Positions 29,774-33,315 of a DNA stretch of 36,977 nt are shown here, piece by piece. The notes below the pieces were generated by a model that was given only the letters and a program-made list of their open reading frames with translations, made no database searches and was not told where the DNA came from. This DNA comes from Rhodospirillales bacterium. GTDB taxonomy: Bacteria; Pseudomonadota; Alphaproteobacteria; Rhodospirillales; Casp-alpha2. The translations under genes and the position numbers were made by a program. The first letter of the stretch is position 1, and every line of letters begins with the position of its first letter. The stretch spans positions 1 through 36,977 of the forward strand of contig JAFMCK010000004.1 in NCBI GenBank assembly GCA_017857825.1, read 5' to 3'.

Positions 29774-30775
<1,002 letters not shown>

Positions 30776-30806: not shown

Positions 30807-31703
30807 ATGCCGATCGATTGGGATAAGCTTCGTGTCTTTCACGCGGTCGCGGAGGCGGGTAGCTTCACCCATGCGGGTGAGAAGCTGAATCTCAGCCAGT
30901 CTGCGATCAGCCGTCAGATCAGTGCCCTCGAACAAAGTCTCGGCACGCCGCTGTTTCACCGTCATGCGCGTGGTTTGTTGCTGACCGAGCAGGGCGAGAC
31001 GCTACTTGAGACCGCGCGGAGCGTGTTCTCGCAGTTGGCGCGCGTGCAGGCGCAACTAGCTGAAAATAAACAACGTCCGCAAGGGCCGCTCAAGGTTTCG
31101 ACGACGGTCGCTTTCGGCTCGGTATTTCTGGCGCCACGGATGAAGGAATTTGTCACCCAGTATCCGGAAATCGATGTGTCGTTGGTGCTGGCCGATACCG
31201 AGCTGGATCTGTCGATGCGCCAAGCCGACGTGGCGATCCGCCTGACCCCGCCGACACAGCCGGATCTCGTGCAACGCCATTTGATGACGCTGCGCTACCG
31301 CGTTTATGCCGCCCCCGAATACCTGCAGCAGAACGGGATGCCGAAATCGCCGAAAGACCTGGATAAGCATAAGATTGTCGTCTATGGCGACGATGCTAGG
31401 CCGCCAGCGATGAATTTGAACTGGCTTTTGGCAGCGGGTCGTAAAGACGGATCGGTCCGAAACCCCGTGCTCAGGCTGAATTCGATCTATGGTATCTTGC
31501 GTGCAGTGCAGAGCGGACTGGGTGTCGGCGCGCTGCCGGAATACATGGGGCGCGAGCTTGGCAGCCTCGTTGAAATCATGCCTGAACTCGAAGGACCTGA
31601 GTTGGATATGTTCTTCGTTTACCCGGAAGAACTGAGAGAATCTGCCAGAATCGGCGCATTTCGCGATTTTATTGTCGCGAAGCTTGCGGCGGTAAAACGC
31701 TAA
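30807..31703 (+). CDS. LysR-family transcriptional regulator
   Basis: MPIDWDKLRVFHAVAEAGSFTHAGEKLNLSQSAISRQISALEQSLGTPLFHRHARGLLLTEQGETLLETA. Confidence 0.93.
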   Translation: MPIDWDKLRVFHAVAEAGSFTHAGEKLNLSQSAISRQISALEQSLGTPLFHRHARGLLLTEQGETLLETARSVFSQLARVQAQLAENKQRPQGPLKVSTTVAFGSVFLAPRMKEFVTQYPEIDVSLVLADTELDLSMRQADVAIRLTPPTQPDLVQRHLMTLRYRVYAAPEYLQQNGMPKSPKDLDKHKIVVYGDDARPPAMNLNWLLAAGRKDGSVRNPVLRLNSIYGILRAVQSGLGVGALPEYMGRELGSLVEIMPELEGPELDMFFVYPEELRESARIGAFRDFIVAKLAAVKR

Positions 31704-31849
31704 ATCTATTGGTGACCTTTGGTTTGCGTTAGATATGCGTGAAATGCATGGCTGGGTTGCCGCTTTGGCTCTGGTGTGCAGCCACAACAAATCTATATAC
31801 CCTATGTAGTCGATGTTGCATTGCAGCAAGACGTAAGGTTTTGAGGCGT

Positions 31850-32020
31850 CGTTACAGATCGATTGATCGCAGATAATTCGCTGATCTTGATCCGCCTCCA
31901 GCAGTTTCCGGGCTCCCTGTCCGGAATGAGGGACCGGTTTCCGGCCCCTCGCGTCTCCCAGACGTGAAACCTCCCTGTTTAAACTCGCCCCCGGGGTTTG
32001 TCCCCGGGGGATTTTTCTTT
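31850..32020 (+). ncRNA. Candidate structured small RNA (or long 5' leader) ending in a strong intrinsic terminator
   Basis: Intergenic region with several hairpins (CGTCT-CCC-AGACG; AAAC-CTCCCT-GTTT) followed by CCCCCGGGG-TTTGT-CCCCGGGGG-ATTTTTCTTTT. 5' end not defined. Confidence 0.4.
31987..32020 (+). terminator. Strong Rho-independent terminator
   Basis: 9 bp perfect stem CCCCCGGGG/CCCCGGGGG, 5 nt loop, then ATTTTTCTTTT. Confidence 0.85.
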
Positions 32021-32240
32021 TCTGGGAACAGCAAGCGCCTTTATAGCGGCACCCGGCTTGTCGTGACGAACCCGCGGATAGATGCTATCGTACCTATCGG
32101 TTTTAGAAGGAACTGGGTTTCTTCTGTCCGAACCGTTCATTTTCGCAGCAAATCTGCGCGCGGGGTCTTTAAATCCGTGTGCGTGGGCTTACCTGCAGTG
32201 TACCCAGAAAAATGTGACCAGGAAAAAGGAGCTCCAGCGC

Positions 32241-32957
32241 ATGGCTGACAGCAAACGTATTCTCATTATCGCAACCTCGCACGCCGATCTCGGTGAGACC
32301 GGCAAAAAGACCGGCTTTCATTACGAGGAGTTGGCGACCCCGTATTTTGCCTTTACCGACGCAGGCTACCGGGTCGATTTCGCCTCGCCCGAAGGCGGCA
32401 TGATTCCGTACGACCCGAACAGCTACGCAGAGACCGAGGCTGACCGCCCGGACAGCGTTAACCGCTTCGTCACAGATATGGACGCACTGACAAAAGTGCA
32501 GGTGACCAAACGGATCGAACATGTGAACGCCGAAGACTACGACGCAATTTATCTGCCAGGCGGCCACGGCACCATGTGGGACCTGCCGGAAAACGAGCGC
32601 CTCGGCCAGCTTATCGTCGATGCGATGGAACGTGATATTCCTGTCGCCGCCGTCTGCCACGGCCCGGCCGGCCTGATTGCGGCCACCTACGCCGACGGCA
32701 CGCCCGTCGTCAAAGGTCGCAAGGTGAACAGCTTTACCGATGCCGAAGAGCACGCGGTCGAGCTCGAGGAAGTTGTGCCGTTCCTGCTCGAAGCCAAACT
32801 CCGTGAGTTGGGTGCCGAGTTCGAAGGCGGCGAAAACTTCACGCCGAAGGTTGTCGTCGACGGCAATCTGATCACTGGCCAAAACCCGATGTCGGCAGCC
32901 CCGCTTGCTGACGCCGTGTTGACGGCCATCGACGCACGCCGCAAAAAAGCCGCGTAA
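32241..32957 (+). CDS. Type 1 glutamine amidotransferase-like DJ-1/PfpI family protein
   Basis: MADSKRILIIATSHADLGETGKKTGFHYEELATPYFAFTDAGYRVDFASPEGG...IYLPGGHGTMWDLPEN...AVCHGPAGLI; ATG 32241 with AAAAAGGAG upstream. Confidence 0.92.
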   Translation: MADSKRILIIATSHADLGETGKKTGFHYEELATPYFAFTDAGYRVDFASPEGGMIPYDPNSYAETEADRPDSVNRFVTDMDALTKVQVTKRIEHVNAEDYDAIYLPGGHGTMWDLPENERLGQLIVDAMERDIPVAAVCHGPAGLIAATYADGTPVVKGRKVNSFTDAEEHAVELEEVVPFLLEAKLRELGAEFEGGENFTPKVVVDGNLITGQNPMSAAPLADAVLTAIDARRKKAA

Positions 32958-33024: not shown

Positions 33025-33315
33025 TCAGTGTCCGCCCGTGATCGGACCTTCTTTGTACAACCATTCTTTGAGTTGGCCGGCGAAGTCTTCGTTGTTGCGG
33101 CGCATCCATTCCAGGACCATGCAGGCGTGTTCCATTTCTTCGCGCATGTTGTGCAGCAGGATTTCTTTGAGCTCTTCGTTTTCGCAGTCGTCGGCGCGCT
33201 GACGGTACCAGTCCACGGCCTCCATTTCTTCCATCAGTGAAACGATGGCGTGGTGAAGTTCGAGCGTTTCTTTGCTCAGGCGTTCGCGTGGTGCGTGCAG
33301 ATTGTCGCTGGCCAT
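33025..33315 (-). CDS. EncFtn-type (encapsulated-ferritin-like) ferritin-like protein
   Basis: MASDNLHAPRERLSKETLELHHAIVSLMEEMEAVDWYRQRADDCENEELKEILLHNMREEMEHACMVLEWMRRNNEDFAGQLKEWLYKEGPITGGH; matches the EncFtn pattern (HRAIVS.MEELEAVDWY...LAHNRDEEKEHA.MTLEWLRRN...EGPIT) with metal-ligand E..E and ExxH motifs. Confidence 0.88.
   Translation of the reverse strand: MASDNLHAPRERLSKETLELHHAIVSLMEEMEAVDWYRQRADDCENEELKEILLHNMREEMEHACMVLEWMRRNNEDFAGQLKEWLYKEGPITGGH

What the first reader, a model, noticed from the sequence alone, without database searches (positions are those of the whole stretch)
31704..32025. Candidate sRNA or regulatory leader between a LysR gene and a DJ-1/PfpI gene
A very strong intrinsic terminator sits about 280 bp after the LysR stop and about 220 bp before the PfpI start, too far from LysR to be an obvious gene-end terminator. 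Just upstream are small hairpins with C/U-rich exposed segments (loop CTCCCT in AAAC-CTCCCT-GTTT; CGCCTCC; loop CCC in CGTCT-CCC-AGACG). CU-rich loops recall alphaproteobacterial anti-Shine-Dalgarno sRNAs (alpha-r14 / cuckoo types), an analogy only.
Basis: inference. Interest (0 to 1): 0.6.

Follow-up and report, generated by a model that had tools for sequence, protein, structure and literature searches.

The report
Conserved small RNA beside LsrB regulator
The stretch is a real small-RNA gene, kept in the same place behind the redox-linked regulator gene lsrB across much of the Alphaproteobacteria, whose RNA most likely pairs with the ribosome-binding sites of nutrient-uptake mRNAs and blocks their translation; it fills the slot that the known AbcR RNAs fill in rhizobia.

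Summary
Window ~31807-32018 (+) is a stand-alone sRNA gene. Its core (hairpin CGUCU-CCC-AGACG, unpaired GAARCCUCCCUG, terminator) is matched in most of 61 order-level genomes, with strong covariation across the class. The gene order trxB-lsrB-sRNA is the AbcR1 locus of Agrobacterium: the window LysR is an LsrB/VtlR orthologue. Of 100 class-wide LsrB genes, 61 have the RNA within 700 nt downstream. The promoter carries the published LsrB box at the published distance, plus a PhaR-type operator; the genome encodes PhaR and Hfq. By sequence and structure the RNA is closer to SorX (RF02784) and alpha-r8/MmgR (RF00519), but below both Rfam cut-offs. It is not detectable as ar15/AbcR, and alpha-r14 gave no match. 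It is not a pfpI leader: pfpI is absent beside the RNA in relatives. Best model: an LsrB-activated, PhaR-repressed, Hfq-assisted anti-Shine-Dalgarno sRNA acting on transporter mRNAs. Existence and locus are shown computationally; expression, regulation and targets are inferred.

The parts
29807..30775 (+). trxB, thioredoxin reductase (conserved neighbour upstream of lsrB)
   Evidence: TIGR01292 416 bits, above cut-off; conserved beside lysR in relatives
30807..31703 (+). LysR regulator, orthologue of LsrB/VtlR; predicted activator of the sRNA
   Evidence: PDB 9hh1 (A. tumefaciens LsrB) E 3.1e-95, next best 2.1e-35 (9hh1 is named in PMC11975290); operon order trxB-lysR as in PMC7486931
31746..31758 (+). 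LsrB/VtlR box GCAT-GGC-TG-GGT-T (consensus GCAT-N3-TG-N3-T), second half of inverted repeat ATATGCGTgaaaTGCATGG
   Evidence: consensus and position -61..-49 from PMC8844928; in 24 of 34 order-level upstream regions, 1.2 expected
31793..31798 (+). predicted -10 element CTATAT; transcription start predicted near 31807
   Evidence: alignment of promoters, including Rhizobiaceae abcR1; consensus CTATAT from PMC8844928; inference
31817..31825 (+). PhaR-type operator core TGCATTGCA (palindrome YGCRNYGCR), predicted +11 to +19
   Evidence: TGCRNYGCA in 27 of 34 order-level upstream regions, 0.8 expected; motif from PMC12542648; similar palindrome GTATTGCAGTGCAATAC upstream of this genome's own phaR
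31807..32018 (+). predicted full-length sRNA transcript (about 212 nt; 5' end not mapped)
   Evidence: promoter elements plus terminator; model matches R1 96 bits and R2 79.4 bits on 31909-32018
31906..31926 (+). hairpin a (UUCCGGGC-UCCCU-GUCCGGAA)
   Evidence: centroid; similar stem with other letters in relatives
31928..31950 (+). hairpin b (GAGGG..CCGG-UUU-CCGG..CCCUC)
   Evidence: its three modelled pairs all show changes on both sides, 96.7% of cells paired
31951..31965 (+). hairpin c GCGUCU-CCC-AGACGU, containing CUCCCA (31955-31960), the same letters as AbcR motif M1
   Evidence: M1 = CUCCCA in PMC5461406
31966..31977 (+). unpaired seed GAAACCUCCCUG, anti-Shine-Dalgarno core CCUCCCUG 31970-31977
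   Evidence: letters invariant except A/G at one position in nearly all rows of the 32-sequence alignment; median unpaired probability of CCUCCCU 0.78 over 83 homologues
31988..32020 (+). Rho-independent terminator
   Evidence: all 7 modelled pairs covary, 98.7% of cells paired

Best explanation
An independent sRNA gene of the lsrB locus. LsrB (the adjacent LysR protein) binds upstream of a weak -35 and activates transcription. PhaR, the PHB-sensing repressor, binds just downstream of the start and holds it down until PHB accumulates. The transcript (about 140-210 nt depending on species, possibly processed to a ~75-nt 3' part as SorX is) exposes CCUCCCUG between a CUCCCA hairpin and the terminator. 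With Hfq it pairs to Shine-Dalgarno regions of nutrient-uptake (ABC/TRAP) and carbon-metabolism mRNAs and blocks translation. Shown computationally: the gene, its structure, the synteny, the box motifs, and the presence of LsrB, PhaR and Hfq. Inferred: transcription, binding, processing and targets.
For: Homologues: 54 of 61 order relatives have a DNA match at E<=1, most of the best ones on the core; model R1 matches 96 of 190 class genomes. Covariation: 97.2% of cells paired, 16 of 17 pairs with double changes, score 0.515 against 0.173 in shuffles and at most 0.135 in slid controls. Synteny: LsrB found in 100 of 190 genomes, 61 with an R1 hit within 700 nt downstream on the same strand, median gap 189; trxB-lysR beside nearly all order loci. 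In Rhizobiaceae the same slot holds ar15/AbcR1-2 and the promoters align. LsrB box and PhaR motif far above shuffle expectation. PhaR 157 bits, Hfq 108 bits. Published parallels: LsrB activates abcR1 (PMC8844928); PhaR binds and represses mmgR (PMC12542648); SisA represses through the same kind of 10-mer (PMC12559287).
Against: No expression data. Genome-wide, AGGGAGG-N4-9-ATG is not enriched (14 against 15 for the reversed pattern), so no target set is shown; one LivK-like mRNA (L255) and one TRAP-like binding-protein mRNA (L211) pair well but not beyond some control genes. Outside the order the exact LsrB-box consensus is less frequent (9 of 51). The window LsrB has no cysteine, so redox sensing as in Agrobacterium cannot be assumed. 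A -35 box is not evident. The homologue models were built from the same relatives that match them best.
Confidence: 0.8

Rival explanations
1. It is a 3'-UTR-derived RNA cut from the lysR transcript, as SorX is cut from the RSP_0847 mRNA, without a promoter of its own.
For: Same strand, mostly 120-300 nt behind lysR; SorX, the nearest Rfam family, is made this way by RNase E (PMC6238624).
Against: Between lysR and the RNA lie conserved regulator boxes and a -10-like element that align with the abcR1 promoter; in some genomes the same RNA lies 2-6 kb from lysR or elsewhere.
Confidence: 0.12
2. It is a cis-acting leader or attenuator of the downstream pfpI gene.
For: Terminator 220 nt upstream of pfpI on the same strand.
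Against: No relative's locus read carries pfpI beside the RNA, not even those of the same genus, while the RNA is kept; no anti-terminator was seen in the fold.
Confidence: 0.03
3. It is simply a lineage-specific extra copy of alpha-r8 (MmgR/Sis), with function defined by that family rather than by the lsrB locus.
For: Sub-threshold match to RF00519 (29.9 bits); model R2 recognises alpha-r8 loci weakly but significantly; shared CCUCCCU seed and PhaR operator.
Against: The genome has a separate, better alpha-r8 candidate (C274, 39.9 bits), many genomes carry both at different loci, and the RNA is fixed to lsrB across families.
Confidence: 0.25

Closest known systems
AbcR1/AbcR2 (alpha-r15, Rfam RF02345), Rhizobiaceae
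   Same: Gene order trxB-lsrB-sRNA, LsrB box, spacing and -10; CUCCCA in a hairpin; single-stranded C/U-rich anti-SD; terminator
   Different: RNA body not alignable: R1 finds no ar15, R2 gives only noise-level scores there, and ar15 gives no match to the window; AbcR motif M2 (GUUCCC) is absent; PhaR operator absent from abcR1 promoters
SorX (Rfam RF02784), Rhodobacter sphaeroides
   Same: Best Rfam match; same order of hairpin, ACCUCCCUGUU and terminator; its sub-threshold hits coincide with R1 hits in dozens of genomes; in one genome that also has a strong SorX (G213) an above-cut-off SorX match lies 149 nt behind LsrB
   Different: 32.3 bits, below the 46.6 cut-off; SorX itself comes from the RSP_0847 3' UTR, not the lsrB locus; the window RNA has two further 5' hairpins and LsrB/PhaR boxes
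MmgR / SisA-D (alpha-r8, Rfam RF00519 'suhB')
   Same: CCUCCCU seed after a weak hairpin, terminator, PhaR control of mmgR
   Different: 29.9 bits, below the cut-off of 41; the better alpha-r8 candidate lies at another locus of the same genome

Membership tests
ar15 / AbcR (RF02345) | Match to the Rfam covariance model at or above 40 bits | tested here: not met
   No match to the window at E <= 10; 0 of 190 class genomes over cut-off, own genome none; Rhizobiaceae loci 59-122 bits as positive control
ar15 / AbcR (RF02345) | Located behind trxB-vtlR/lsrB with a VtlR/LsrB box in the promoter | tested here: met
ar15 / AbcR (RF02345) | Motifs M1 CUCCCA and M2 GUUCCC | tested here: not met
   CUCCCA at 31955-31960 is present; GUUCCC is absent from the predicted transcript (motifs)
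SorX (RF02784) | Match at or above 46.6 bits | tested here: not met
   32.3 bits, E 6.3e-06 over the full model length
SorX (RF02784) | RNase E release from an mRNA 3' UTR | not testable with these tools
   needs RNA 5'-end mapping
alpha-r8 / MmgR (RF00519) | Match at or above 41 bits | tested here: not met
   29.9 bits
alpha-r8 / MmgR (RF00519) | Conserved 10-mer UUUCCUCCCU unpaired before the terminator | tested here: not met
   Window reads GAAACCUCCCUG: shares CCUCCCU, differs in the 5' letters
alpha-r14 / cuckoo anti-SD RNAs | Match to the alpha-r14 Rfam model | tested here: not met
   All 4227 families scanned at E <= 10, no alpha-r14 match; cuckoo RNAs beyond Rfam not tested
Trans-acting Hfq-dependent sRNA (mode of action) | Expression, Hfq binding, target repression | not testable with these tools
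   Hfq gene present; nothing else measured

The most novel reading that the evidence does not exclude
An ancestral LsrB-controlled anti-SD sRNA runs through the Alphaproteobacteria, unlisted as a family, from which SorX arose by copying and which was replaced at the same promoter by the unrelated-looking AbcR body in Rhizobiaceae. Outside Rhizobiaceae it joins a cysteine-less LsrB to the PHB sensor PhaR, so that one RNA sets nutrient uptake by both inputs.
Probability: 0.4. Interest if true: 0.72.

Novelty: new variant of a known kind. Interest (0 to 1): 0.55.

Why it matters
AbcR RNAs have been studied mainly in rhizobia, Agrobacterium and Brucella. This locus suggests that the LsrB-sRNA circuit is much older and class-wide, with a different RNA body and an added PHB-sensing input. 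That links three separately studied RNAs (AbcR, SorX, MmgR) and gives a concrete test in many harmless species of how uptake and carbon storage are tied together. A family model for Rfam could be made from the alignments here.

Tried and rejected
Leader of pfpI: rejected by synteny. Alpha-r14 membership: no Rfam match. AbcR/ar15 homology at RNA level: models R1 and R2 do not find AbcR, R2 even with filters off. Coding ORF over the region (e.g. 31964-32248): rejected because spacing between core elements varies by one or two bases in relatives. Operator as RNA hairpin: the 'loop' letters keep an R-N-Y rule that fits two half-sites, not base pairing (inference). Target search by AGGGAGG before ATG: no enrichment; duplex energies of LivK-like genes not clearly above controls. 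The genome-wide count of TTGCRNYGCA is uninformative (219 against 205 for the reversed pattern). Papers on SorX (PMC5056773) and alpha-r8 phylogeny were not held, so an earlier listing of these loci as alpha-r8 copies cannot be excluded.

Full report
WHAT IS THERE. The region 31880-32020 folds at -61.9 kcal/mol against -46.9 +/- 4.1 in shuffles. The centroid shows hairpin a (31906-31926), hairpin b (31928-31950), hairpin c (31951-31965), an unpaired stretch with CCUCCCUG (31970-31977) and the terminator (31988-32010). The proposed AAAC/GTTT hairpin is not in that structure and is not kept in relatives.

IT IS A CONSERVED RNA. BLAST of 31800-32060 finds a match at E<=1 in 54 of 61 genomes of the same order; the best of these lie on the core. 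In the 32-sequence alignment the letters AGACGUGAARCCUCCCUG are invariant or nearly so, while the hairpin a, b and terminator letters change. A covariance model (R1) finds 96 of 190 genomes across the class at E <= 0.01. On 85 aligned homologues 97.2% of cells pair, 16 of 17 pairs have changes on both sides, and the covariation score is 0.515 against 0.173 in shuffles and at most 0.135 with slid partners. The alignment was fitted to this structure, so the figures lean towards it, but the terminator and hairpin b changes are many. CCUCCCU has a median unpaired probability of 0.78.

THE LOCUS. The window LysR matches PDB 9hh1, the A. tumefaciens LsrB structure of PMC11975290, at E 3.1e-95, with the next PDB entry at 2.1e-35. 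Upstream is trxB. In A. tumefaciens the order is trxB-vtlR(lsrB)-abcR1-abcR2 (PMC7486931). With the A. tumefaciens LsrB as query, 100 of 190 class genomes have an orthologue-grade match. For 61 of them an R1 hit lies within 700 nt downstream on the same strand, median gap 189 nt. In 80 named Rhizobiaceae loci, the six scanned with Rfam all have ar15/AbcR copies in that same slot.

THE PROMOTER. PMC8844928 reports for S. meliloti abcR1 a CTATAT -10 and an LsrB box GCAT-N3-TG-N3-T at -61 to -49, needed for activity and bound by LsrB. The window has GCATGGCTGGGTT at 31746-31758 and CTATAT at 31793-31798; a start at 31807 would put the box at -61 to -49. The box is upstream of the RNA in 24 of 34 order-level copies (1.2 expected), but only in 9 of 51 other copies (1.4 expected), so it drifts with distance. 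Window-type and Rhizobiaceae abcR1 promoters align from box to -10 to GATG. Just downstream of the -10 lies TGCATTGCA, matching the PhaR palindrome YGCRNYGCR of PMC12542648. It is present in 27 of 34 order-level copies (0.8 expected) and 17 of 51 others (2.2 expected), but not in abcR1 promoters. The genome encodes PhaR above the curated cut-off beside a PHA-synthase-like gene (by reading), with GTATTGCAGTGCAATAC about 45 nt before the phaR start. S. meliloti PhaR binds and represses mmgR.

RELATION TO KNOWN RNAs. Against Rfam the window scores 32.3 bits for SorX (cut-off 46.6), 29.9 for suhB/mmgR (41) and 25.5 for anti-hemB (49.5); alpha-r14 and ar15 give nothing. In the class sample, SorX sub-threshold hits fall on the same places as R1 hits, whereas RF00519 hits above cut-off are mostly elsewhere in the same genomes. 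In G213 a SorX match above cut-off lies 149 nt behind LsrB. R2, built on 85 homologues, recognises alpha-r8 loci at 14-31 bits but AbcR only at noise level. So by RNA body it belongs near SorX and alpha-r8, and by locus and promoter it is the counterpart of AbcR1. It is filed under none of them.

MECHANISM. Parallels with tested function: AbcR1 represses livK by anti-SD pairing (PMC3712013); AbcR M1 is CUCCCA (PMC5461406), the same letters as in hairpin c; SisA represses through its CCUCCCU seed (PMC12559287); SorX acts on a polyamine-transporter mRNA and is cut by RNase E. Hence the model: LsrB turns the RNA on, PhaR holds it down when no PHB is stored, and the RNA, with Hfq (gene present), blocks SD regions of uptake and metabolic mRNAs. 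None of these steps was measured. Target support is weak: no genome-wide enrichment of AGGGAGG before ATG. The LivK-like gene of L255 (AAACAGGAGGUUCCC, near-full complement of the seed, -16.7 kcal/mol) and the TRAP-like binding protein of L211 (named by reading its sequence only; -19.6) are candidates only.

CAUTION. The window LsrB has no cysteine; the functionally important C273 of A. tumefaciens LsrB is V in 25 of 26 order orthologues read and C in 80 of 80 Rhizobiaceae. The signal sensed here is therefore unknown, and oxidative control should not be assumed. The organism's name was not determined.

Noticed in passing
G000 contigs C196:8970-9068(-), C69:16113-16214(+), C274:993-1066(-) (loci L221, L222, L220): Three sibling anti-SD RNAs in the same genome; C274 is the best alpha-r8/MmgR candidate (39.9 bits) and has a PhaR-type palindrome upstream, the other two have neither PhaR nor LsrB box.
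   Followed up: partly
window 30807-31703: LsrB orthologues outside Rhizobiaceae mostly lack cysteines (0 Cys in 22 of 26 order proteins read), so the published thiol redox switch looks like a Rhizobiaceae feature.
   Followed up: partly
L025, L030, L031, L101: Tandem copies of the sRNA behind lsrB in several relatives (two, in L101 three), like abcR1-abcR2 in rhizobia.
   Followed up: no
L222:6357-6469 (-): Sub-threshold ROSE thermometer match (38.8 bits, cut-off 45), just upstream of an ORF that looks like a small heat-shock protein.
   Followed up: no
window 33025-33315 (-): Encapsulated-ferritin-like (EncFtn) gene convergent with pfpI; also near the sRNA in some relatives (L003, L007, L020).
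   Followed up: no
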